Origin: Nitzschia sp. pyKryTriq1
Lineage: Eukaryota; Bacillariophyta; Bacillariophyceae; Bacillariales; Bacillariaceae
Assembly: GCA_956465555.1 (NCBI GenBank)
Contig: OY101125.1
Coordinates: 250,501 to 314,500, forward strand
Direction of reading: 5' to 3'
DNA: 64,000 nucleotides
The notes below the pieces were generated by a model, which saw nothing but the letters and a program-made list of their open reading frames with translations, was not told the origin of the DNA and ran no database searches. Of the stretch, positions 10,681 to 59,290 are shown in pieces. Numbering within the stretch: position 1 is the stretch's first letter; every line of letters starts with the position of its first letter. The translations under genes were made by a program, and so were the position numbers.

Positions 10681-12617
10681 TCATGCGAACTGCCCTGATG
10701 GTGATGATGGTGGTGGTGGTGGTGTAGTACTTATTGTAGTAAGAGGGAGAGGATTGGAAAGGGCCGAAATATCCGATCGAGTATGCATATCATTATTGAT
10801 ATTACCCTTTTGAAGTTCGATTTCTCGATTACGAGCGGCCAATTGTTCCAAGGTTTGTCCCGTCGTTTCCGGTAGGCTCGTAAAATAAAAGGGAAGCGAG
10901 GCCAATCCGACCATACCATACAGGGCAAACAATCCACCACTTCCCAACCATTCGTACAAACTAACGGCCGTCAAGGCTACGGTACCGCTCGTACAACGAT
11001 TGACGGCGGCACACAAGGTCATACCGGTCGCACGTTCGGAAAGTCCGAGACTTTCGGACGCTACCAAAAAGGTAAAGGGGCCCAATCCGATACTGAAACT
11101 GGCCATGATCAGACACAAGAAAATGACGATAAAGAGTGGATGCCAATCTCCATAAAAGGCCCAACTCAACAGTAGCGTCGATAACATCAAGGAAATGGCG
11201 GATCCCAACATGAGTGGTCGTCGACCAATCTTATCGACCCATTGCATGACAATGAGTTCGGGTATCAATTTGCACAGTCCGACAAAGCAATTCCCCAATA
11301 AACGTTGGGTAGGTGATTCCAATCCAGCATGTAACAAAAAGTCGGCACTGTAATACAAGACTGCTTCCGTACCCGTAATTTGTTGCCAAAATCCCAAGGC
11401 CATGGAAAGTTTCATTCCATGAGTAAATCGGCATTGCGTAATAGCTTCAATAGGACTCAAACGTGCCGCCGAAAGCGTACCCGCGCAGGAAGAAGCTTCT
11501 TCCTGTTGGAGTTCCTCTTCAATCGAAGACACGGCTTTGAAAATTTGTCGTGGATTGCTACCCAAACTTTCCATGACCCGACTGGCTGCCTCCGGTTGTT
11601 GTTTCATGACTAACCATCGTGGCGATTCGGGCAAATGGACCAAATTATACAGTACCATAATCGGCAATAGAATTCCCAAACCTAGCATGATGCGCCATTT
11701 GATAGAATCGGGTACGTTGGGTATCAGTTCGACAAGAAATCCGAGTACATATCCCAACAGAATTCCTCCATTAATCGCCACATCAAAGACGGTATTGAGT
11801 TTTCCCCGCAAATGTGTGGGTGCGACTTCGGACAAGTAAACGGGTGCAACGACAAAGGAAACACCGACGCCCATACCCGTGACGATTCTTCCGCACAACA
11901 ATAGATAGTATCCTGGAGCACACGCCATGAGAAGCGTCCCCACGACAAAGATCCACGAGCATACCTTGACGGTATATTTTCGGCCATGTTCATTGGCAAT
12001 TTTACCACCCAACACGGCTCCCTATGATATATATGTGATATAATAATATTATTAACCAACAAACCAAGACAAAAGAGTGAGATATACCGGTATTCGTCAA
12101 TGGACATGAAAATGAACATGAACAAAATATTATGACGTACAATAGCTGCGACAAAGTTGAGACTGCCCATGGCCAATTCCTTTTGAATACTATTCAATTC
12201 CATCGTTTCTTCCATCGGTTGAATGGCAGCTGCCATGATTCCGACATCGTATCCCAACGTGGCTGCCGTAGCCGCCGCTACCAAGACTAAGCGCTGCAGT
12301 CCTTGATGCAACGGTGATGATTCGTCATTCTCATTCTCATCCTCTTCGTTGTCGTCGCCTTCGTCGTCGGCTGCGTTGGCTTCTTCCATGGAAGAGTGAG
12401 GTGTATGGTAGGGTTGATAGGTTTCGCCGTCATTATCATCGTCGGTACTACTGCTGGTAGGTATTCCAAAATTATGGTTGTGCTTATCGCTCTTTATCGG
12501 TGGTCGTTGTTGTGATGGTTCCGCCGGTGGAGGGGATGAGGTGATAGCATCCGCCTGATGATGGCCGCGGATGCTGATGCTGCTAGGTAGCAGCATTTTC
12601 GTTTCATTCTTGGCCAT
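10681..12617 (-). CDS. MFS sugar-porter family transporter
   Basis: The exons are 12617-12141 and 12021-10681 with a phase-0 intron (119 nt, GTACGT...ATAG), giving 605 aa. It is a 12-helix proton-linked or facilitative hexose/polyol carrier of the major facilitator superfamily. Family signatures visible are GYDVGIMAAA in helix 1, GGKIANEHGRK after helix 2, PESPRWLV after helix 6, QQITGTEAVLYYS in helix 7, DKIGRRPLM, and PETTGQTLEQL at the end of helix 12. The first 95 residues are an acidic, Asp/Glu/Asn-rich cytosolic tail, much longer than in most sugar porters. It is transcribed away from two mannitol dehydrogenase genes, so mannitol, fructose or a related hexose is the best substrate guess. 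That is inference; the transport specificity cannot be read from the sequence. Confidence 0.93.
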
Positions 12618-13196
12618 CTTCTAAGAGAAGAGCTTATTTTGAATACTGTATTGATTTTATGAATGATGGACGACTCCTCCTCCTCTTTATCGATCGGAAC
12701 AATCAATGCGTTCCAAACCAAAAGGCAAAGAAGTAGTGATATATTATTATGAGACAACAAAAGAAAAAAGAAGCACTAAACAAACATAAACATCGACCTC
12801 GCTCGCGCTTTGCAAAAAAGGAGCTGTCGAAGTCCGATGTGATTGGTGCATAATCCTCATCCGGTCGCTAAATACGATAACGGTAAGTTCTTATTTAACC
12901 GTCATCAGACACGTGGTCCAATGAGAACCCTGAAGAATCCTCAATCATTGTACATATCATAGTGCGGATCCAAAAAAATCCATAACTCCCCTTCTCCCAT
13001 TTCGCGTTTCTGGTGTCGGATGTGTACCACTGAGCGTCTGTCATCCCCCGCCCGCCATGCCAGCTGATGAGAAAGCCAATAAACTATTACAAAGGCACTC
13101 CATCTTCTCGCATCGTCACTTTTTTTCCTTTCGACCGCGTTCGCATCTTGCCTTTTGACCTTCTACTTTTCATCAACAAAATCAACAACATCAACA
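12618..13196. promoter_or_regulatory. divergent promoter region, sugar porter / mannitol dehydrogenase 1
   Basis: This 579-bp head-to-head interval has a G-box core CACGTG at 12910-12915, a nearby CCAAT at 12918, a reverse CCAAT (ATTGG) near 12841, and an AT-rich TTATTTAA near 12890. None is proven. The geometry suggests shared control of the carrier and enzyme genes. Confidence 0.45.
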
Positions 13197-14714
13197 ATGA
13201 AGCTATCTACAGCAAATCTCTCTTCGATTGCCTCTAAAGGTGTCGTCCAAGTCCCCCAATATGATCGTTCCTTGGTCAAGCCTGGAATTTTGCATGTCGG
13301 AATTGGCAATTTTCATCGCGCCCACATGGCCGCGTATTTGGACGATTTGTTGGAACAAGATTTTGAACACGCCCACAATTGGGGCATTGTCGGTGCCGGA
13401 ATGTTGCATTTTGATCAAGCCAAGCGCGATTTGTTGGAACCACAAGATTGGTTGCAAACAGTCGTCGAACACGATGCGACCGTGACCCGGCCTCGGATTT
13501 TGGGTAGCATGATTGATTTCTTACCCATTGATCCTCAAGCCATTGCAACGGCCTTGCAAAATCCTCAAATCAAAATCGTGTCTCTCACTGTGACCGAAGG
13601 AGGATACTTTTTAAAGGATGGTGGAAAGTTTGATGTGAATCATCCTCACATCCAACAGGATATTGCCCATCCCGACACAACCCAAACGATATTTGGAGTT
13701 TTGTGTCAAGCGGCCAAATTTCGAAAGGAAAACAATCTTCCCTTGTTTACCATTTTGTCGTGCGACAATATTCCCCACAATGGGGACGTTACGAAAAGTG
13801 TCGTCATTGGCTTGGCCAAGGCACAAGATGCATTGCATGCTACCTCCTTTGCCGAATGGTTGGAGGACAAGATGGGATTTCCCAATTCCATGGTCGATCG
13901 TATCACTCCGGCTACTACCGACGAACAAAAGAAGTTTATTCAAGAACAATATGGCTATGAAGAGGCATGTCCGGTCTTTTGTGAACCCTTTCGTCAATGG
14001 GTATTGGAAGATGCCTTTTCCGAGAGTGGTCGTCCTCCATTGGACATGCTGGAAAATGTCAAGTTTGTCCCCGATGTCACACCGTACGAATTCATGAAGA
14101 TTCGCATTTTGAATGGAGGACACGCCAGTCTCTGCTATCCCAGCGCTCTATTGGATATCCCATATGTGCATGAAAGTATGCAACATCCGACGATTGCCGC
14201 CTTTTTGGATTGTTTGGAACATTCCGAAATTATTCCCACTGTTCCTCCCGTTCCCGATACCGTATTGGTAGAGTATTGGGATACGATTGCCAAACGCTTT
14301 TCCAATCCAACCCTCAAGGATACGATTGGTCGGAATTGTTATGATGGGGCCAGTCGTCAACCCAAATTCATTGTTCCGGCCATCCAAGACAATTTGGCAG
14401 CTGGACGCAGCGTCGATGGCATGGCGTTGGTATCGGCACTATGGTGTCGGTATTGTCAAGGCAAAACCGAATCGGGCAAGGAGATCCTACCCAATGATCC
14501 TCAATGGGATCGTCTCCATGCATTGGCCACCAGCACCACCAAGGAAACCTCTGTTTCGCCCAAGGCGTGGTTGGAAGGATTACCCGACGTCTATGGTAGT
14601 ACCGTGGCGACCTCGCCCGTCTTTATCCAAGCCTTTGACAAGGCCTTGACTCGTATTCAAAAAGACGGAGTCGAATCGGCCATGAAACAATACGTGGCCG
14701 ATTGTAAGAAATGA
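13197..14714 (+). CDS. mannitol 2-dehydrogenase-type long-chain dehydrogenase, copy 1
   Basis: This is a single-exon gene of 505 aa starting at MKLSTANLSS. It belongs to the polyol-specific long-chain dehydrogenase/reductase family (mannitol 2-dehydrogenase, fructuronate and altronate reductases), which interconverts mannitol and fructose with NAD(P). The N-terminal nucleotide fold shows HVGIGNFHRAHMAAY. The catalytic triplet K-x4-N-x2-H is intact as KIRILNGGH (K301, N306, H309), matching the Lys-Asn-His of the Pseudomonas enzyme. DNIPHNG and RITPATT are further family blocks. There is no targeting peptide, so it is probably cytosolic. A close tandem paralogue follows at 15519. Substrate specificity (mannitol versus other polyols or uronates) is inferred from overall resemblance, not proven. 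Confidence 0.93.
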   Translation: MKLSTANLSSIASKGVVQVPQYDRSLVKPGILHVGIGNFHRAHMAAYLDDLLEQDFEHAHNWGIVGAGMLHFDQAKRDLLEPQDWLQTVVEHDATVTRPRILGSMIDFLPIDPQAIATALQNPQIKIVSLTVTEGGYFLKDGGKFDVNHPHIQQDIAHPDTTQTIFGVLCQAAKFRKENNLPLFTILSCDNIPHNGDVTKSVVIGLAKAQDALHATSFAEWLEDKMGFPNSMVDRITPATTDEQKKFIQEQYGYEEACPVFCEPFRQWVLEDAFSESGRPPLDMLENVKFVPDVTPYEFMKIRILNGGHASLCYPSALLDIPYVHESMQHPTIAAFLDCLEHSEIIPTVPPVPDTVLVEYWDTIAKRFSNPTLKDTIGRNCYDGASRQPKFIVPAIQDNLAAGRSVDGMALVSALWCRYCQGKTESGKEILPNDPQWDRLHALATSTTKETSVSPKAWLEGLPDVYGSTVATSPVFIQAFDKALTRIQKDGVESAMKQYVADCKK

Positions 14715-15518: not shown

Positions 15519-17003
15519 ATGCGCCTATCAACTTCTATGCTCACGTCTTTGGCCAAAAAGGGCGTTTCGGTGCCCAAATTCGATCGAGCGTCGATCAAGC
15601 CAGGCATCGTGCACGTCGGAGTAGGAAATTTTCACCGCTCTCATATGGCAGCATATGTCAACGACATGATGCTGACTAACTTTGACGTTGGTAAAAACTG
15701 GGGTATCATTGGATGTGGAACCCTTCATTTTGATCAAGCCAAACGGGATTTGTTGGAACCCCAAGATTGGCTCCAAACCTTGGTGGAGCGCGATAGCGAT
15801 AGCACGAACGCTCAAGTGTTGGGATGCATGACGGACTTTTTGCCGATTGATATCCAGGCGATCCAAAAGACCTTGGAGAATCCAGACATTAAAATCGTAT
15901 CGCTGACGGTCACGGAAGGTGGATACTATCTCAAGGATGGCAAGTTCGACCTGCAAAATGAGCACGTCAAGCATGATATTGCCCATCCGGACGATCCGAA
16001 GACCATCTTTGGTGTCCTGTGCAAGGCAGCTCGATTCCGAAAACAAAACGATATGCCACTTTTCACGGTTCTGTCTTGTGACAATATTCCTCACAATGGC
16101 AACGTTTGCCAAAGGGCGGTCATCAGCCTGGCCAAGGCGCAGGACGAGCATTTTGCCAACTGGATGCTGGACCACGTGGCGTTTCCCAATTCCATGGTGG
16201 ACCGAATCACACCCGCCACTACCGACGAGCAAAAGAAGTTCATTAAAGACAAGTTTGGTTATGATGATGCCAGTCCTGTTTTCTGTGAACCGTATCGACA
16301 GTGGGTTCTGGAAGATACCTTTTCAGCGGCCGGGCGGCCACCACTGGACATGCTCGAAAATGTCAAATTTGTTCCCGATGTCATGCCGTATGAATTCATG
16401 AAGCTCCGCATTCTCAATGGTGGTCATGCTAGTCTTTGCTATCCGAGCGCCTTGTTAGATCTCGAGTTTGTTCATGAAAGTATGGAACATACGACTATTT
16501 CGGCCTTTTTGGATACTCTCGAACGTCACGAGATCATTCCTACAGTGCCACCCGTCCCAGACACGGTCTTGAACGACTATTGGACGACCATTGCCAACCG
16601 ATTCACGAATCCAACGCTCAGCGATAAAATTGCACGCAATTGCTACGATGGTCTGAGTCGTCAACCTCAATTCATAGTCCCTACCATGCAGGACAACATG
16701 AAAGCAGGTCGATCGGTAGATGGTATGGCGCTGGTTTCCGCCATGTGGTGCCGATACTGCCAAGGGACTACCGAATCGGGCAAGGAGATTCCACCCAACG
16801 ATCCGCAATGGGACCGCCTTCATACATTGGCTCTACAAGCCAAGGATGACCCAAAGATTTGGCTTCAAGAATTGTCCGAGGTCTACGGATCCAACGTCTC
16901 TCCCGAATTTGTGTCGGCATTTGAAAAGGCCCTCTTCAGCATCCAAACAGATGGTGTCGAAGCTGCCATGAAGAAGTATGTGGCAGCCAACAACAAGAAA
17001 TAA
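15519..17003 (+). CDS. mannitol 2-dehydrogenase-type long-chain dehydrogenase, copy 2
   Basis: This single-exon gene codes for 494 aa and is colinear with copy 1 along its whole length; long blocks are identical, such as FDQAKRDLLEPQDWLQT and SLTVTEGGYYLKDG-type segments. The catalytic Lys-Asn-His are at 295, 300 and 303 (KLRILNGGH). It starts MRLSTSMLTSLAKKG, parallel to the start of copy 1, so both starts support each other. Differences concentrate in surface segments (for example a shorter loop after SLAKAQDE), which suggests an old duplication with both copies kept functional. The likely role is mannitol/fructose interconversion, perhaps with different cofactor preference or expression from copy 1. 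Confidence 0.93.
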   Translation: MRLSTSMLTSLAKKGVSVPKFDRASIKPGIVHVGVGNFHRSHMAAYVNDMMLTNFDVGKNWGIIGCGTLHFDQAKRDLLEPQDWLQTLVERDSDSTNAQVLGCMTDFLPIDIQAIQKTLENPDIKIVSLTVTEGGYYLKDGKFDLQNEHVKHDIAHPDDPKTIFGVLCKAARFRKQNDMPLFTVLSCDNIPHNGNVCQRAVISLAKAQDEHFANWMLDHVAFPNSMVDRITPATTDEQKKFIKDKFGYDDASPVFCEPYRQWVLEDTFSAAGRPPLDMLENVKFVPDVMPYEFMKLRILNGGHASLCYPSALLDLEFVHESMEHTTISAFLDTLERHEIIPTVPPVPDTVLNDYWTTIANRFTNPTLSDKIARNCYDGLSRQPQFIVPTMQDNMKAGRSVDGMALVSAMWCRYCQGTTESGKEIPPNDPQWDRLHTLALQAKDDPKIWLQELSEVYGSNVSPEFVSAFEKALFSIQTDGVEAAMKKYVAANNKK

Positions 17004-20806: not shown

Positions 20807-22126
20807 TTAATTGTTCTTCAAAAAGTCATAGATGAGCTTAAAGTCGTCGTCATCGTAATTGACGTCGTCCTCATTCTTTCTTCCCAAAATGTCATCCATA
20901 CAAATGGACAAGCTTTCGAATAGACTAGCATCTTCTTCCTTGCTGTTTGGCGCTGAAGCTACTATATTGTTGTTGTTTTTGTCTTCTGTTGAAGGAGCCG
21001 CAGTAGCAGAACAAGCGATGAATTCTGTCAATCCAACAGAGTGGTCCAGAGCTAGAATACGTAAACACCAAAGCTGGTCCATCCTTCGGATGATTTTTGT
21101 GTTGTTGTTGTTGTTGTTGCTGTTGTTGTTTTTAGTGAGAACGTCCACATTTAGCAGCCTTGTGGGCTTTGTAATGACACCAGGCTTGTTGTGAAGGGAG
21201 ACTTGATGAGCAAATCCAAAAATAGAGTCGCGTACGGGGCTGTTCCTGCTGTTGGTCGATGATGATGATGATGATCCTTGTTGTCGGTTGGCAAGATACA
21301 AGTCGGCAACATCTTTCTGGTTGCGCTTGTATGTTTCTTCAATCATTTCTCTCGAAACAACATTTCGCTCAAAGGCAGGCGATGCATAAAATCTAGAAAC
21401 GCCCTTGTGGACGTCTCGAATGAATATCCATCGATGCTCCATGGCATCTGACACCAAGGAGTCGTCACCACCATCGGATGCTGTTGTTATCCCAATGGAC
21501 CTCCAGAGAGAGGTTGGGACTTGGTGGATTTCCAGTGGTCGACCCAGCACCTTTTGTTCCTCGCCCGGTGTCAGTAGAAACGAGTGGAGGAATTCCATCC
21601 CTTGTTGTTGCTGTTGACCACTACCACTACTACAGAGAACATCATCCATAGACATGCCACAGCGAAGGGCCAAGGCCCCCGCTTTTACCCATAAATCAAA
21701 CGAGCGACGCTTGAGCGACAAGGTGACCCACTGTCGTACCATGAATTGTAAACCAAAATGCGTCTTATCGGAAATAACGGTAGGATCATCCATCATGTGA
21801 CTGGCAATCGCCGCAGCTTCGCCCTTGGTATTAATACACATGCTGGACGTACTACTAGTGGCGGGGGTTCTTGCTGTCTCCACCACCTCATCTGCTGCTT
21901 GCTCATCCTCATTATTTACGCTCGACATCACCCGCTGGCGCTTGTGGCTGCCGTCGCTACTGCTGCTGTGGCGAGTGCTGCGGCTGCGGCTGCTGCTGCG
22001 CCTTCCCTGTCGGGATTCGTGAGGAAGGCAGTCGTTTTCTGGACGACCCAGTCGAAGGCATCGTTGACACGGGAAACCACCGATACATTTTACTTTCGCA
22101 GCTTTACAGGCGACACAAGCACCCAT
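20807..22126 (-). CDS. Zn2Cys6 (Gal4-type) zinc-cluster regulator
   Basis: This single-exon gene codes for 439 aa. The extreme N-terminus is a binuclear zinc cluster: Cys at 4, 7, 14, 20, 23 and 33 in the pattern C-x2-C-x6-C-x5-C-x2-C-x9-C, with basic residues between the second and third Cys (KAAKVKC). In fungi such domains bind CGG triplets as dimers. A basic Arg/Ser-rich linker and KRQR follow (likely nuclear signal). The rest has no domain that I can name and contains Asn and Ser runs. It lies head to head with the NmrA-like gene, and a palindrome rich in CGG triplets lies between them. A self- or neighbour-regulating role is inferred. Zn2Cys6 proteins are uncommon outside fungi, so the family call rests on Cys spacing. 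Confidence 0.85.
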   Translation of the reverse strand: MGACVACKAAKVKCIGGFPCQRCLRLGRPENDCLPHESRQGRRSSSRSRSTRHSSSSDGSHKRQRVMSSVNNEDEQAADEVVETARTPATSSTSSMCINTKGEAAAIASHMMDDPTVISDKTHFGLQFMVRQWVTLSLKRRSFDLWVKAGALALRCGMSMDDVLCSSGSGQQQQQGMEFLHSFLLTPGEEQKVLGRPLEIHQVPTSLWRSIGITTASDGGDDSLVSDAMEHRWIFIRDVHKGVSRFYASPAFERNVVSREMIEETYKRNQKDVADLYLANRQQGSSSSSSTNSRNSPVRDSIFGFAHQVSLHNKPGVITKPTRLLNVDVLTKNNNSNNNNNNTKIIRRMDQLWCLRILALDHSVGLTEFIACSATAAPSTEDKNNNNIVASAPNSKEEDASLFESLSICMDDILGRKNEDDVNYDDDDFKLIYDFLKNN

Positions 22127-50669: not shown

Positions 50670-53600
50670 ATGAAGTTTCCACCCATCGCAGCATCTTGCT
50701 TGCTTGTGGCCCAGGCCGGTCTCCTGTTGGTATCAAGTGTGGATGGTGCTGCTGGGTGCTGCTCCCAGGATCACAAGAACTGTATCAACGATTGCACCGG
50801 CGGCGCAAGCAACTGCGAAGGAGGTGCTTGTTGGAACGATAACACTCTCCTCTGGTTACCTGGTGGGGGTTCTGAAAACAACCCCCAGTGCATCCAGCGG
50901 TGGGTGGCAGGTTGTCAAACCACCAATGTCTGGTCGTCTAGTTCTCCAAATAACCCTTCCCTCTTCTATGGTACTGCCGACAACTCGAAGTGTTGCGGTA
51001 CTCTGATTTGTGATGTCAAGAAAAATGACCCAGCATGGTGGCACTGTAACCATCCTCTCGAGATTTGCGATACGTATGGGGCTAACGACTGCCCAACCAA
51101 AAATTGCCAAAAGGTTCAAGGGAAGTGTGTCCCTAAGAACTCGAACTTCTACCACACCGCACTTTCTGGTGCTCAAGCACAAACACCTGCTCCGACCCCG
51201 GGTCCAACTCCAGCTCCTCAAGTACCGCAGCCTACCGCCGCGCCCCTGCCTTGCAACAGTCGCAACGGGTCAAGCAAGTGCGAAGAAGATGGCTTATGCC
51301 TATTCGTGAAGGGCAACTGCCAACCTGTCTATGGCGGCGTAGGGTCCCAGGACGACATTTGCAAGGTCACCCTCACAGAAGACACGGAGAGGGACTTGAT
51401 CTACGCCGATATCCCCGGCCAAGGGTGTTCGGAGGGCTACATCTGCGCTGTGGTCAATGGAACAGGCGTTGAAGGAGAAGAGATAACGGGCTCGTGCCAG
51501 CCAGAACAATGCATGGGCAAAAAGGTCCCTGGCAATTGCAACGGAAACAATCCCAAGGACGACGAGTGCGTGGCCACCACCGAAAGGGTGACGATTTGTC
51601 ACCGCACTTGCTCTGAGACCAACCCTTGGGTTCGAATCACCATTGATGAAGACGCTTGGGACGGACAAGGCTGTGGACATCAGCAGCACGATGTTCGAGA
51701 CGAATGCTCGAACAAGGCCCCCTGGACCGCATGGGGACGGCGCCGCAAGGACTACTTGCTCAAGAGACACGGAACACGTGCCGAAGTAGCAGCGGCTCTT
51801 GGCAACAACAATGCAGCAGAGAAGGCGTACTGGAAGAAGTGGGAGCACGCGTGTCCTTTCGTACGCAATGGAGACTGCTGCAGCATGAACCTTGCAGATG
51901 AGAATCCCTGCTGTGGGGACGATTCGTATGCTCCGGATTCCCTTGTCTCGTGGGCAGACACGACCCCGGATTCCTACTGCCCGGCAGTGAACAATCTCGG
52001 ACAAGGTTACAGTGCAGCCATTGGATACAATGGAACCTTCCCCGTTCTGTCAAGTACAGGTCTCGGCCGAAGAGGAACGGACGATGCAATCACGGTCCTC
52101 ATCGGAGGAAACTACGTCGCACCAGCTGCAGCTGAGATTGAAGGAAAGGTAGTGGTTCTTGGTAACTTCCTGATTGGTAGCAGCGGAACCAATTCTATTG
52201 GTAAGTTCGCAAACAAAATTGAATGGCACCGACTGCTTTATTGTGACTCACTTTGTTCTGAATATTTCAGGCCATGCCGGGGTTGGTAGCGGCATCTTCC
52301 CCAGTGTCCCAGGGGTCCATCTGCAAGTTGGAGGTAACCTCGATGGGGGCAAGAAAGATGGAGAAACCTGGTTTATGAGCGGCGCCAGCGTGGAATACGG
52401 CGGCAGCTGTATCAGCAATCCAAGTAACACCCGCAAAACTTCGTCCTACCCTGATAGCAAGGCTTGCGGATCCATGTTTGTCCCAAACGCGGTTGGTGCA
52501 TCCATTAGCCAGATAGCACTCAACCCAACTCCGTACTTGCAACTCTTCGATGAGCTCAGAGATAAGTCCGACTACTGGTATTCTCTTGTGCCCAATGGAG
52601 TGGTGGAGCAGAACGGGCAAGTGGTCCGGCTGAAGGCCGTGGACAACAACTGTGTTCAAGTCTTTCTTTTGGAGCATTCCCATCTAGCGACCCTCCAACT
52701 AGCCACCTGGGGTGAATTCTACTTCAATGCTAACTTGAGCGGCAAGACTATTCTGATCAACGTATCTCCATACGATGCCACTGGTGCTTTGAAGGACGAG
52801 GTTGTCGTCAATGGCATTTCGCGAATGTCTGACCCAGCTGGAAATTTTGATTATAACTTCTCCCCGGCTTTCAAGTCTTCCATGTTATGGAACTTCAACA
52901 GAGCCCCGAAGGTCGTTCTCGGCCCCGATGGCAATCTCCAATTTCCTGGATCCATCCTCATTCCGTGGGGAGGTTTGGATATGCACTGGGTTGGACAAGA
53001 TGGTCGGACCCTCGTCTACGGTGACGTTTTGCACGACAAGGCTGGCTCCGAATTCCACAACTATCCCTTTGATCCTCCTTGCCCATTGCCCTTGGACCCG
53101 CAAGGGCCAATGCCAGATAGCTGTTACGAGGACATCCCCGCACCGCCCACCACGAAGCCAACAACACCTCCAACGGCTGGACCTACTGCTAAACCTACTG
53201 CTAAACCTACTGCAACTCCCACTTCGAAGCCCACTTCGAAGCCCACGGCCCAGCCCACGGCCCAGCCCACCTCGAAGCCTACCTCGAAGCCTACCTCGCA
53301 GCCTACCTCGCAGCCCACCTCGAAGCCCACCGCCCAGATCACCGCCCAACCCACCTCGAAGCCCACGGCCCAGCCCACCGCCCAGCCCACCGCCCAGCCC
53401 ACCGCTCAGCCCACCGCCCAGCCTACCGCTCAGCCTACCGCTCAGCCCACGGCGCTGCCTACCTCGAAGCCCACCGCCCAGCCTACCGCCCAGCCTACCG
53501 CTCAGCCTACCGCTCAGCCTACGGCGCTGCCTACCTCGAAGCCCACCGCCCAGCCCACGGCGCTGCCTACCTCGAAGCCCACCGCCCAGCCCACCGCCCA

Positions 53601-56600
53601 GCCCACGGCGCTGCCTACCTCGAAGCCTACCTCGCAGCCCACCGCTCAGCCCACCGCTCAGCCCACCGCTCAGCCCACCGCTCAGCCCACCGCTCAGCCC
53701 ACCGCTCAGCCCACCGCTCAGCCCACCGCTCAGCCCACCGCTCAGCCCACGGCCCAGCCCACGGCCCAGCCCACGGCCCAGCCCACGGCCCAGCCCACGG
53801 CCCAGCCCACGGCCCAGCCCACGGCCCAGCCCACGGCCCAGCCCACGGCCCAGCCCACCGCCCAGCCCACCGCCCAGCCCACCGCCCAGCCCACCGCCCA
53901 GCCCACCGCCCAGCCCACCTCGAAGCCCACCTCGAAGCCCACCGCCCAGCCCACCGCTCAGCCCACGGCCCAGCCCACGGCCCAGCCCACGGCCCAGCCC
54001 ACGGCCCAGCCCACCGCCCAGCCCACCGCCCAGCCCACCGCCCAGCCCACCTCGAAGCCCACCTCGAAGCCCACCTCGAAGCCCACTGCCGCTCCAACCA
54101 ATCCTGGCGAATGCCCGTTTGTCACTCTGGACTTCACCGACTTACCCAATCCCATGGCTGATTACTATGGTCAATCTCCTACCTTTCAGGCTGGTGATTA
54201 CCTGTACGATCAGCTCTGGTACAGTTATGGAGTGAAGGTCTCGGCCCGAGTCAGAGCCGACGGTCATAAAGCCTCGAAAATGCCATTCATTCCTCGCTAT
54301 GACCGCGATGCAGGCACTTGGATCTACGAAAGCAACCAAATTATCAATGACCCTTCGTCGGGTGGTGCGGTGCGCCTTTTTGATACCATGAGACCCACTT
54401 GGAACTCCAACCCTGACTATCACCAGCCGCTCTGTAGTAACAAAGCTGGTGAGGGCGATGAGGACTTGGGAGCTCCCAATCATCAATGTGACGGGGGTGG
54501 ACCCGGTAAGTTGAATCAAGGAGGAAGATGCAATAGAAAGAAAGATTTGTGCGTGTATACATATATTCTCAACCGCTCTTTGCTTGTTGCCTTGTCATCT
54601 CATTTCGAAACGCAGGAGAGGGACCGGGAGGCGCGCCCCTTTTGTCCAATGGTACAGTCAATCCGTATGCAAACTGCGTTCCCCTTGGCTTGGTCAGCAT
54701 AATTCAAGAAGCAGACAAAGCCTGTCCCGACGATACTGCCAAAGGTGGCTACATCACTTTCACCTTTCGCGAGCCGGTCGAGCTGTCCTTGACGTCCTTG
54801 CTGGATATTGACGAAGGCGGAAACAGCCCCGTGTTGGTCGTCTCTCAAGGAGCACAGAAGAGCACTCTGAGCACCAAGCCCACTGGCGACAACGGGCTTT
54901 ACCCAGTGGACATTGATGCAAGTGTATACACCGCTGTCACCATGGTGGATGTCCAGTACTGGGGATCTGGCAGCATCAATTCCTTGGTCTACCGCTATTG
55001 CCCCGAGAGTCCCACGCCCGAAATTAAGATTATCAAGTACGCCGGTCCACCAGGAAGCTGTACTGCCGAAGGCGTGAGCAGCCTTCAAGATGACTTGTAC
55101 ATGGTACCCTCCACTTCCGACGACTGGGCATACTGCTACGAGATTAGTATCCCCGAGAGCAGTGGCGAGTGCTTGTATGACGTTCAAATGAATGACCCTG
55201 CTCCAAAAGGCGGCCTTCAAAACCATTCGGTCACCCAACTTTCCGAGCTTCTTTGCCCAGGAGAAACTGTGTACGTTTCGGGAGAGCCAATCTCGGGATC
55301 GGAGGCACCTGAGGGGTCCATCAACGCCACTGTGGTTGGAAAGGGGTATTATTCCGGCCAAGAGGTGAATGACTCCGATCCCGCCGCTGTGGACATCGCC
55401 ACTGCAACACCTACTGCAACTCCCACGGCTCAGCCCACCGCCCAGCCCACCGCCCAGCCCACCGCTCAGCCTACCGCTCAGCCTACCGCTCAGCCCACGG
55501 CGCTCCCCACCTCGAAGCCCACCGCCCAGCCCACCGCCCAGCCTACCGCTCAGCCCACGGCGCTGCCTACCTCAAAACCTACTGCTAAACCTACTGCAAC
55601 TCCCACTTCGAAGCCCACGGCCCAGCCCACCTCGAAGCCCACGGCCCAGCCCACCTCGAAGCCCACGGCCCAGCCCACCTCGAAGCCCACGGCCCAGCCC
55701 ACGGCTCAGCCCACCGCCCAGCCTACCGCTCAGCCCACGGCGCTGCCTACCTCGCAGCCTACCTCGCAGCCCACCGCTCTGCCCACGGCCCAGCCCACGG
55801 ATGGACCCACTTCGGGACCTACCGGCGGACCCACGGCTGGACCCACCTCGGGACCTACCGGCGGACCTACGGCTGAGCCCACCTCGGGACCTACCGGTGG
55901 ACCCACCGCTGGACCCACCTCGGGACCTACCGGCGGACCCACGGCTGGACCCACTTCGGGACCTACCGGCGGACCCACGGCTGGACCTACCGGCGGACCT
56001 ACGGCTGGACCGACCTCGGGACCTACTGGCGGACCTACGGCTGGACCCACCTCGGGACCTACCGGCGGACCCACTTCGGGACCTACCGGCGGACCCACGG
56101 CTGGACCTACTGCTGGACCCACCTCGGGACCTACCGGTGGACCTACGGCTGGACCTACTTCGGGACCTACCGGCGGACCCACTGCTGGACCCACTTCGGG
56201 ACCTACCGGCGGACCCACGGCTGGACCTACTTCGGGACCTACCGGCGGACCTACGGCTGGACCCACTTCGGGACCTACCCGCGGACCAACTGCTGGGCCC
56301 ACCTCGGGACCCACTTCAGGACCTACCTCGGGACCTACTGGCGCACCAACGCCTTCGCCCACTGTTTCACCTGCGCCTAGTGACGCACCATCGAATGCTC
56401 CTTCGGCTAGTTTGTACCCAAGCCAGGATCCTACAGCTGGCCCCACTGGATCCCCAACATCAGGACCTACCTCGGTACCAACCTCTGGACCCACCTCTGG
56501 ACCAACTTCCGGGCCAACTTCCGGGCCAACTTCCGGACCAACCTCTGGACCCACGGCTGGACCCACCTCGGGACCTACCGGCGGACCTACGGCTGGACCC

Positions 56601-58346
56601 ACTTCGGGACCTACCGGCGGACCCACGGCTGGACCTACCGGTGGACCCACGGCTGGACCCACCTCGGGACCTACCGGCGGACCTACGGCTGGACCCACTT
56701 CGGGACCTACCGGCGGACCAACTGCTGGACCCACGGCTGGACCCACTTCGGGACCTACCGGTGGACCTACGGCTGGACCCACTTCGGGACCTACCGGCGG
56801 ACCCACGGCTGGACCTACCGGCGGACCCACGGCTGGACCCACCTCGGGACCTACTGGCGGACCCACTGCTGGACCCACCTCGGGACCTACCGGCGGACCC
56901 ACGGCTGGACCCACCTCGGGACCTACCGGTGGACCCACGGCTGGACCCACCTCGGGACCTACCGGTGGACCCACGGCTGGACCCACCTCGGGACCTACCG
57001 GCGGACCTACGGCTGGACCCACTTCGGGACCTACCGGCGGACCAACTGCTGGACCCACTACTGGACCCACGGCTGGACCCACCTCGGGACCTACCGGCGG
57101 ACCCACGGCTGGACCCACCTCGGGACCTACCCGCGGACCCACGGGTGGACCCACCTCGGGACCCACTGCTGGACCCACCTCGGGACCTACCGGCGGACCC
57201 ACGGCTGGACCCACCTCGGGACCTACCGGTGGACCCACGGCTGGACCCACCTCGGGACCTACCGGCGGACCTACGGCTGGACCCACTTCGGGACCTACCG
57301 GCGGACCAACTGCTGGACCCACTACTGGACCCACGGCTGGACCCACTGCTGGACCCACCTCGGGACCTACCGGCGGACCCACGGCTGGACCCACTTCGGG
57401 ACCTACTGGCGGACCAACGGCTGGACCCACCTCGGGACCTACCGGTGGACCCACTTCGGGACCTACCAGCGGACCCACCGCTGGACCTACCGGCGGACCC
57501 ACTGCTTCACCCTCCTCTGGACCTGACGTTTGCCTCTATCCCCCTCCTGTGGAACCCGAGTGTCCCGAGAACATTGTCGTGAATAACCCTGACGAGAGCA
57601 AGCAGGGCAATTATCCGATCAAGATCATTTCACAAGGCGTTACGACCGTCACTTTTGATTTGTACAATCCTTATAGCGATGAGGCAGCTCTGTACTATCA
57701 GTACGCTGCAAGTACGGATGGTATTACCGTGTGTAATAATGTGCTCGGACTCGCTACTTGCGCGCAACCGACTAGGGTCACGGCTCACTGCATCACGGGT
57801 TCAGCCGCCCACCCGAAGGAACATCCTGTTGCCATTGTCGAATTGTGGTTTACATCCCCGGCTATTAGTACTTCAGTCAATGACACTATTCCAGAGTGCT
57901 GCGTTCCTTCTGATGAGCAGGGAAGTGGTTCCACTGCACTTTACAGTCTCAAGGTGTATTGCCATCCCATGTGTCCTCCTGCTGACGAGGCCGCCCAGGG
58001 TTCCGCTCGTCGTGACCTGGCTATCGAAGCTGCTGCAGACCCAAGCAGCAGCAGCAGCAAGTCTGCTAGTGACTTCGAAACTGTTGCCCAGCAGGAAGGT
58101 GCTGTCTTCGAGCCCAGCAGAGATCATTCGAAGGAACACTTCTGTGCCGCTGAAGACTATCCATGTGGAGATGCCGATGATGGAGACGACGACGACGACC
58201 TTGTGAATATTTGCCACTACTCCTCCAAGGATGGTTACCAGACTTACTGTGTGCCCGAGTCTGACACTGACGTTGTTGCGTACTTCCCCAAGGATTATTG
58301 TGGTCCTTGCGTTGGCGGATACGGCAGTAGCACGTACCGAAACTAA
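50670..58346 (+). CDS. giant secreted adhesin-like protein with choice-of-anchor-A domain and Pro-Thr ladders
   Basis: The exons are 50670-52200, 52271-54505 and 54616-58346, both joins in phase 1, giving 2,498 aa. Signal peptide about 1-27. A Cys-rich region (28-175) and a linker with Pro/Thr follow, then a small ICH-type module (VTICHRTCSETNPW). Residues about 447-777 match the bacterial choice-of-anchor-A adhesin fold: VLIGGNYVAP, VVVLGNFLIG, ILINVS, SSMLWNF, GSILIPWGG and the closing EFHNYPF. The first Pro-Thr ladder (about 804-1121) has PTAQ/PTSK units. A second globular part (1122-1510) holds RLFDTMRPTW, LGAPNHQCDGGGPG and LTSLLDIDEGG. The second ladder (about 1511-2224) has PTAQ/PTSK and then PTSGPTGGPTAG units. 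The C-terminus (2225-2498) is Cys-containing, with NICHYSSKDG. There is no membrane anchor. A cell-surface or adhesive-mucilage role is inferred. Confidence 0.9.
53150..54102 (+). repeat. first Pro-Thr tandem array (12-bp PTAQ/PTSK units)
   Basis: About 79 four-residue units, mostly PTAQ with PTSK and a few PTAL, are coded by CCCACCGCCCAG-like 12-mers. Blocks of identical third-codon bases (CCCACGGCCCAG versus CCCACCGCTCAG) show recent local amplification. Confidence 0.93.
55402..57520 (+). repeat. second Pro-Thr tandem array (12-bp and 36-bp units)
   Basis: It begins with PTAQ/PTSK units (to about 55795) and then changes to PTSG-PTGG-PTAG, a 36-bp higher-order unit repeated dozens of times. 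A short non-repeat island (TPSPTVSPAPSDAPSNAP) near 56345-56440 divides it. The whole array lacks stop codons on the other strand too. Confidence 0.93.
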
Positions 58347-59290
58347 AAGAAGTTGCATACGAGTGTGTATGTATGCATGCTGGGAAACAAGTCCACTACT
58401 ACTCGTACATACATACGAATGATGATGTAATTGTTGAAGGAGAAAAAAAAAGAAGAAAAAAAAATGCATGTCAATGATGACTTCAACCGAAATTACTTTC
58501 ACTACTAATACTACATACGAATACTACTTACCATAAGGAAATAATTACTCCTATACGATGATATGATTTGATATGATTTGATAATATGATATTATGAGTG
58601 TCATATTCCAAAGGGAGTAATATGATGCGTATTAGACTATACTACTCTAGCTAGTAGTTGCCAAAAATAATAACCAAATTATTTTAAAATAAACGCCGCC
58701 GCGGCATGTTGGCAGATACTGCTGTACTCCGGTACTTGTACCGTGCGTGATGTCATAGCCTGTACCGGTACAGTACCGTACGAGTAGCCGTGTGCTGTTT
58801 TGTCTACGAGTTCGTACATACTGGTATGGGAGTACCGGTACTGTACCTGGTACTCGTACAGTACCTGCGTTGTTGTGGCATGCATGCGATGCCGGGAGCC
58901 ACAGCGTGGTAAATGTGTAGTCCGATGGGTCGAAGATGATGATGATGACGCACGACGCACGCACGAACCGTAACGACCCACACACTCAGAGCGTAGAAAA
59001 GAGTCGTCGTCGTCGTTCGTCGTCGTTGTACTCTACAATAATAAGTACCGGTATGTACCTGGTACCTGGTACTGTACCAGTACCGTACCCGGTAGTAACC
59101 GCATCATCCCCGCCTCTACTCTCTCTCTGTACCGGTAGAGCGGTACATAGAGATATTAGAGGGAAGAGGAGAGACGAGGCGAGGAGGAGTATTAGGCGAG
59201 GGGGGGATCCAAATAAGAAGAAGACGAAGAAGAAGAAGAAGAATACTGGCGGAAGAGTGATGATGATGATGATGATGATGCTAAAACTCC

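What the first reader, a model, noticed from the sequence alone, without database searches (positions are those of the whole stretch)
50670..58346. Giant diatom-type secreted protein carrying a bacterial-type choice-of-anchor-A adhesin domain
Residues about 447-777 carry the strand-rich pattern and closing EFHNYPF of choice-of-anchor-A domains, otherwise found mainly in bacterial surface proteins. It is joined to two Pro-Thr ladders, a second globular part, and Cys-rich ends. The lack of a membrane anchor suggests export to the wall or adhesive mucilage. Bacterial-origin domains have been reported in diatom adhesion proteins, so acquisition by gene transfer is plausible.
Basis: partly seen in the sequence, partly recalled or inferred. 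Interest (0 to 1): 0.72.

Follow-up and report, generated by a model that had tools for sequence, protein, structure and literature searches.

The report
Diatom adhesin-like protein with bacterial-type domain
A diatom gene encodes a very large secreted protein that carries a sticky-looking domain better known from bacterial surface proteins; related proteins are already known from diatom adhesive trails, so this is a well-supported new example of a known kind, not a new kind.

Summary

It belongs with the ice-binding-fold adhesive-trail proteins of diatoms (Trailins) and the cellulose-binding Jonah lectins of Acanthamoeba. Bacterial origin of the domain is plausible, but my tree finds no donor and excludes no other history.

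Outside ladder 1, its part up to 55397 is 93-97% identical to a second CAA gene (contig C4). Its last quarter matches a different gene (contig C12; C-terminus 84% against 27% to C4). The change-over lies inside Pro-Thr ladder 2. Only these two CAA genes were found in the assembly. Function is inferred, not shown.

The parts
50670..52200 (+). Exon 1: signal peptide, N-terminal Cys-rich part, ICHRT domain, first part of the CAA domain
   Evidence: splice also supported by the profile score: spliced 123 bits against 88 and 23 for the separate frames
50670..50747 (+). Signal peptide, about residues 1-26 (end judged by eye)
   Evidence: hydrophobic windows starting at residues 3-10
50754..51155 (+). 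N-terminal Cys-rich part, residues 29-162
   Evidence: 109 of 134 residues shared with the C4 copy, the lowest of six parts compared
51516..51881 (+). 'ICHRT' domain (name given here), residues 283-404: matched at 8 other places in the genome
52089..52200 (+). CAA domain, exon-1 part (from residue 474)
52201..52270 (+). Intron 1, 70 bp, inside the CAA domain; 70 of 70 bases identical in the C4 copy
52271..54505 (+). Exon 2: rest of CAA, first Pro-Thr ladder, first part of the M1 domain
52271..53073 (+). CAA domain, exon-2 part (to residue 778; ends EFHNYPF); predicted ice-binding-type beta-helix with a long helix
53146..54105 (+). Pro-Thr ladder 1, residues 803-1122 (mainly PTAQ and PTSK)
54109..54505 (+). 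M1 domain, exon-2 part; unassigned by Pfam and NCBIfam
54506..54615 (+). Intron 2, 110 bp; 109 of 110 identical in the C4 copy and 109 of 110 in C7
54616..58346 (+). Exon 3: rest of M1, M2, Pro-Thr ladder 2, C-terminal domain and Cys-rich tail
54616..55001 (+). M1 domain, exon-3 part (to residue 1384)
55014..55397 (+). M2 domain, residues 1389-1516; related segments in C12 proteins, one of which touches DUF7507 weakly (E 0.0018, below cut-off)
55410..57509 (+). Pro-Thr ladder 2, residues 1521-2220 (PTAQ zone, then PTSG/PTAG/PTGG zone)
55398..56643 (+). Zone in which similarity changes from the C4-type gene to the C12-type gene (recombination junction, inferred)
57531..57974 (+). C-terminal globular domain (residues 2228-2375)
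58140..58325 (+). C-terminal Cys-rich tail (holds DYCGPC); also in one C12 gene and at the end of two giant frames on C14

Best explanation
It is a secreted, modular, mucin-like adhesive or wall-matrix protein of a diatom, of the same kind as the Trailins. Shown by sequence or prediction: the CAA domain, its ice-binding-type beta-helix (predicted, exon-2 part), the signal peptide, the absent anchor, the Pro-Thr stalks and Cys-rich ends, and the family of genes that share its modules in other combinations. Inferred: the CAA domain is the ligand-binding head, most likely for an extracellular polysaccharide or a surface; the Pro-Thr ladders are O-glycosylated extended stalks; the Cys-rich ends join molecules into fibres by disulphides; ladder repeats are the sites where recombination gives one head a different tail.
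Against: No expression, localisation, glycosylation or binding data. No linear array of aromatics was seen in the Jonah CAA, so its binding site is unknown. Foldseek TM-scores are only 0.29-0.52 in its first five rows, with rmsd 6.9-10.9, and the model covers 267 of the 305 domain residues (512-778 of 474-778). The species is unknown, so a link to gliding cannot be made. M1, M2, ICHRT and the C-terminal domain have no assigned function.
Confidence: 0.66

Rival explanations
1. It is an ice-binding (antifreeze) protein or an ice-anchoring adhesin: the CAA beta-helix binds ice.
Against: The window domain matches CAA models and not PF11999 at E up to 1; a CAA protein of Acanthamoeba binds cellulose; identity to the ice-binding rows is only 10-17%.
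Confidence: 0.08
2. It is a structural protein of the silica wall or girdle (a cross-linked organic layer), not an adhesive; the CAA domain holds it to wall polysaccharide.
For: Secreted, Cys-rich and Pro-Thr-rich; the Jonah lectin is a wall protein that binds wall polymer.
Against: The published diatom protein of this fold was found in adhesive trails. Wall and mucilage roles are not exclusive.
Confidence: 0.2
3. It works in cell-cell or gamete recognition, with fast-changing N-terminal parts as the variable surface.
For: Between the C11 and C4 copies dN/dS is 1.34 in the N-terminal Cys-rich part and 1.09 in M1, against 0.27 in ICHRT, 0.38 in M2 and 0.55 in CAA.
Against: Few changes (about 6 synonymous in the first part), patchy synonymous divergence and near-identical introns point to gene conversion, which spoils such ratios. 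No population data.
Confidence: 0.06

Closest known systems
Trailins of Craspedostauros australis (CaTrailin_4; Zackova Suchanova et al. [quoted passage not shown] paper not held)
   Same: Large modular secreted diatom protein with an ice-binding-type beta-helix (PMC10713564 passages). From recall of the abstract, not from a call: Trailins carry CAA domains acquired from bacteria.
   Different: No Trailin sequence was available for alignment; whether Trailins have the ICHRT, M1, M2 and tail parts is unknown to me; about 250 kDa here against about 900 kDa for CaTrailin4; gliding in this species is unknown.
Jonah lectins of Acanthamoeba castellanii
   Same: Eukaryotic secreted protein with signal peptide, Thr- and Cys-rich part and a CAA beta-helix thought by the authors to come from bacteria.
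   Different: 44-146 kDa, cyst wall, Thr- or Ser-rich spacers in place of long Pro-Thr ladders; cellulose binding was measured there and is not tested here.
Bacterial choice-of-anchor A proteins (TIGR04215), for example Streptomyces plasmid proteins
   Same: Domain at 26-31% identity over 81% of the 379-residue query in 16 of 16 matching records.
   Different: The two annotated proteins looked at are about 414 and 451 aa and lack room for the diatom parts; the third record has no gene table at the match.
DUF3494 ice-binding proteins (PF11999)
   Same: Predicted fold.
   Different: No profile match of the window domain to PF11999 at E up to 1.
Diatom GDPH-domain trail proteins (Lachnit et al. 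2019; not held; mentioned in PMC7335047 passages)
   Same: Secreted diatom proteins thought to act in adhesion.
   Different: A Gly-Asp-Pro-His tetrad (recalled meaning of the name) is absent at what I take to be the corresponding place by eye (PKEHP); no GDPH profile was available.

Membership tests
Choice-of-anchor A domain (TIGR04215 / PF20597) | Profile score over the curated cut-off across most of the profile | tested here: met
   107 bits against 29, positions 3-254 of 255; 74.6 against 23.8, positions 10-227 of 254
Choice-of-anchor A domain (TIGR04215 / PF20597) | Conserved core residues (AExEG near the start, EFHNYP at the end) | tested here: met
   alignments; AEIEG and EFHNYPF present in the window protein
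Choice-of-anchor A domain (TIGR04215 / PF20597) | Ice-binding-like beta-helix with a long helix | tested here: met
   exon-2 part only, by prediction; no solved CAA structure found by sequence
DUF3494 ice-binding proteins (PF11999) | Profile match to PF11999 | tested here: not met
   Pfam scan of the domain up to E 1 gave PF20597 only; PF11999 in the assembly hits only C4:2558432-2559061
DUF3494 ice-binding proteins (PF11999) | Binds ice | not testable with these tools
   needs purified protein
Trailins (diatom adhesive-trail proteins) | Secreted modular diatom protein with ice-binding-type beta-helix | tested here: met
   fold of CaTrailin_4 from PMC10713564; diatom host
Trailins (diatom adhesive-trail proteins) | Sequence relationship to the Craspedostauros Trailins in shared domains | not testable with these tools
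   New Phytologist paper not held; no Craspedostauros sequence in the collections used
Trailins (diatom adhesive-trail proteins) | Present in adhesive trails | not testable with these tools
   needs proteomics or immunolocalisation
Jonah lectins (Acanthamoeba) | CAA domain with signal peptide and measured cellulose binding | tested here: inconclusive
   domain and signal peptide present; binding untested; sequences not compared
GDPH-domain proteins | Gly-Asp-Pro-His tetrad in the C-terminal domain | tested here: inconclusive
   PKEHP in the window protein, AHGSP in C4, AHGNP in C1 by eye; no alignment to a true GDPH domain could be made

The most novel reading that the evidence does not exclude
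The Pro-Thr ladders act as recombination joints. In this genome they let a bacterial-type binding head (CAA) be joined to alternative C-terminal modules, so that the diatom keeps generating new adhesins by ladder-mediated module swapping plus gene conversion; the window gene would be a young chimera of a C4-type head gene and a C12-type tail gene.
Probability: 0.4. Interest if true: 0.55.

Novelty: new member of a known kind. Interest (0 to 1): 0.38.

Why it matters
It adds a complete gene model of a CAA/ice-binding-fold protein in a compact diatom genome in which only two such genes were found, few enough for removal experiments. The C4/C11/C12 comparison suggests how repetitive mucin-like stalks could shuffle adhesive modules, which bears on how diatom glues and biofouling proteins diversify. 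If the species proves not to be a raphid diatom, the tie between these proteins and gliding would have to be loosened.

Tried and rejected
Bacterial contamination: rejected. Two introns inferred from the frame, neighbouring genes with eukaryotic domains (SERRATE/Ars2, three cNMP-binding stretches, protein kinase, ankyrin, Zn2Cys6) and a second copy with the same two introns on another contig.

Bacterial origin of the M1/M2 part: I recalled similar bacterial domains but found no support. tblastn on 72,556 plasmid records gave no match at E 0.01; the C1 version of M1 at E 10 gave one meaningless match, E 3; Pfam and NCBIfam gave no match over cut-off. ICHRT domain on plasmids at E 1: none. CAA on phages at E 0.01: none. 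CAA on viral contigs: 2 pattern matches, 0 confirmed.

Donor of the CAA domain: not resolved (quick method). The set is biased: one short pattern drawn from an alignment with Streptomyces found the bacterial loci, the tool kept 80 of 170 relatives, and I added 3 of 16 plasmid records. One of the 83 bacterial rows is Bacillota by its title; the rest that carry a title in the tree are Actinomycetota. The tool warned of long branches meeting and of odd letter make-up in both diatom rows. No other eukaryotic CAA could be included. For the profile and the model I used 45 of the 80 loci.

Species: not identified. RF01960 did not complete; 5.8S gave no match; one light-harvesting protein matches several fucoxanthin proteins of solved complexes without a near-identical one, another gave only far matches; none of the 49 assemblies of Table 5 in PMC12159174 (sections 3 part 1, 17, and 18 part 1 seen) has about 40.65 Mb in 20 pieces.

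Structure of the M part from a single sequence: pLDDT 37.5, not used. Solved structures by sequence: nothing below E 0.49 for the domain and E 1 for the alignment. PADLOC: none at E 0.01. Literature: searches gave no paper; one search gave one, on a flagellate, with the domain in a table (one passage seen). PMC6541295 itself says in its text that no other eukaryote had CAA domains, while its S10 legend names others.
Full report
WHAT IS THERE. The window is C11:250501-314500 of a 40.65-Mb, 20-contig assembly. At 50670-58346 (+) three exons, joined over GT..AG introns of 70 and 110 bp, give one frame of 2,498 aa, 250 kDa, pI 4.7. From the N-terminus: signal peptide; Cys-rich part; a domain here called ICHRT after its VTICHRT motif; the CAA domain (residues 474-778); Pro-Thr ladder 1 (803-1122); M1 and M2 (1124-1516); Pro-Thr ladder 2 (1521-2220); a C-terminal domain and a Cys-rich tail. 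Beyond residue 40 no 19-residue window exceeds a Kyte-Doolittle mean of 1.2, and the last 30 residues are not hydrophobic, so neither a membrane anchor nor a GPI signal is apparent.

IS IT REALLY A CAA DOMAIN. TIGR04215 scores 107 bits (cut-off 29) over positions 3-254 of 255, PF20597 74.6 bits (cut-off 23.8). Neither profile rang in any of the 14 control genomes. A profile made only from 45 bacterial rows gives 123 bits for the spliced protein, 88 and 23 for the two separate frames, and nothing at E up to 1 for the other 894 six-frame segments or for 200 shuffles. The better score of the spliced form also supports intron 1. Streptomyces plasmid proteins match at 26-31% identity over 81% of the query in 16 of 16 records with a match.

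HOST. Eight silicic-acid-transporter matches, all over cut-off, best 885 bits, and 72 light-harvesting matches, one of which aligns best with fucoxanthin proteins of solved complexes (that these are diatom complexes is recalled), indicate a diatom. Species and raphid status are open.

THE GENE FAMILY. CAA was found at only two places, C11 (this gene) and C4, by two profiles. The M part occurs at four loci (C11, C4, C7, C1), with M2-like matches on C12 as well; ICHRT at nine places; the Cys-rich tail at four, two of them in giant frames of 7,155 and 6,261 aa on C14. The C7 and C1 relatives gave no CAA match. The C4 copy runs to 1,487 aa and has a short, different Pro-Thr linker in place of ladder 1. 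The tool calls such counts lower bounds.

A CHIMERA THROUGH THE LADDER. Up to 55397, ladder 1 aside, the window gene is 93.5-96.8% identical to the C4 copy in four exon parts and 94.7% over 457 aligned upstream bases. Beyond ladder 2 it is unlike C4 (27% protein identity over 125 columns) but 84% like the C-terminus of a C12 gene (258 columns). On the DNA this similarity spans 56643-58545 at 85%, 199 bases past the stop, to the end of the C12 stretch held. C4's own C-terminus is 66% like that of C1. The simplest reading is that the window gene got its last quarter from a C12-type gene by recombination between Pro-Thr repeats, somewhere in 55398-56643. The direction rests on C4 and C1 sharing a tail type; C7's tail is 27% like both C4's and the window's and does not decide. 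Intron 2 is 109 of 110 identical in C4 and in C7, while exon 3 falls to 85.6% in C7, with 60-base steps between 60/60 and 38/60: gene conversion is likely. dN/dS between C11 and C4 is 1.34 (N-terminal Cys part), 0 (a 60-codon stretch with one change), 0.27 (ICHRT), 0.55 (CAA), 1.09 (M1), 0.38 (M2); with so few changes and conversion likely, these values are only suggestive.

ORIGIN OF THE CAA DOMAIN. In a tree of 85 rows (80 genome loci, 3 plasmid loci, 2 diatom copies) the diatom pair is set apart by a branch of 3.81 plus 0.91 changes per column. This is like the Jonah result, where the authors could not identify the donor either (PMC11423589 passages). It fits an old transfer but does not prove one. 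The bacterial sample is nearly all Actinomycetota and holds no other eukaryote.

HOW IT PROBABLY WORKS. Step 1, secretion: supported by the signal peptide. Step 2, the CAA head binds an extracellular ligand: inferred from the Jonah lectin, whose fusion protein bound microcrystalline cellulose and, less well, chitin (PMC6541295 passages). Step 3, ladders form extended O-glycosylated stalks: inferred from composition (256 Thr and 252 Pro in 996 residues). Step 4, Cys-rich ends link molecules: inferred. Step 5, adhesion or matrix cohesion: inferred from CaTrailin_4 in adhesive trails (PMC10713564 passages; PMC11420354 passages).

KNOWN OR NEW. The New Phytologist 2023 paper on Trailins is not held; its title, seen in four reference lists, says that diatom trail proteins were acquired by transfer from bacteria, and from recall its abstract names CAA as that domain. 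So this is a new member of a known kind. I saw no printed account of ladder-mediated shuffling of these genes, but none of my ten paper searches looked for it specifically.

Noticed in passing
G000:C14:1178962 and 1202528 (outside the window; L148, L149): Two giant open frames (7,155 and 6,261 aa by the tool), about 23.6 kb apart on the same strand, end in the same kind of Cys-rich tail as the window protein. Their last 510 residues look identical by eye, while the two 3,225-base stretches held agree at 2,485 positions.
   Followed up: partly
13155-14714 and 15519-17003 (+): Two neighbouring mannitol-dehydrogenase-like genes (PF01232/PF08125) beside a sugar transporter at 10681-12015 (-); unexpected to me in a diatom.
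   Followed up: no
54506-54615 and 52201-52270: Introns are 179 of 180 identical between C11 and C4 copies although exon parts differ by 3-7%; intron 2 is also 109 of 110 identical in C7.
   Followed up: partly
20807-22126 (-): Protein with a Zn(2)-Cys(6) cluster motif that Pfam calls fungal (PF00172, E 1.7e-5).
   Followed up: no
G000:C1:4283352 and 4323268 against C3:3144038 and 3186600: Light-harvesting matches with equal scores and similar spacing on two contigs, suggesting a recent large duplication or a haplotype left in the assembly.
   Followed up: no
G000:C1:79892-317295 and other contigs: Eight silicic-acid-transporter matches, five of them on contig C1 and three of those within about 10 kb.
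   Followed up: no
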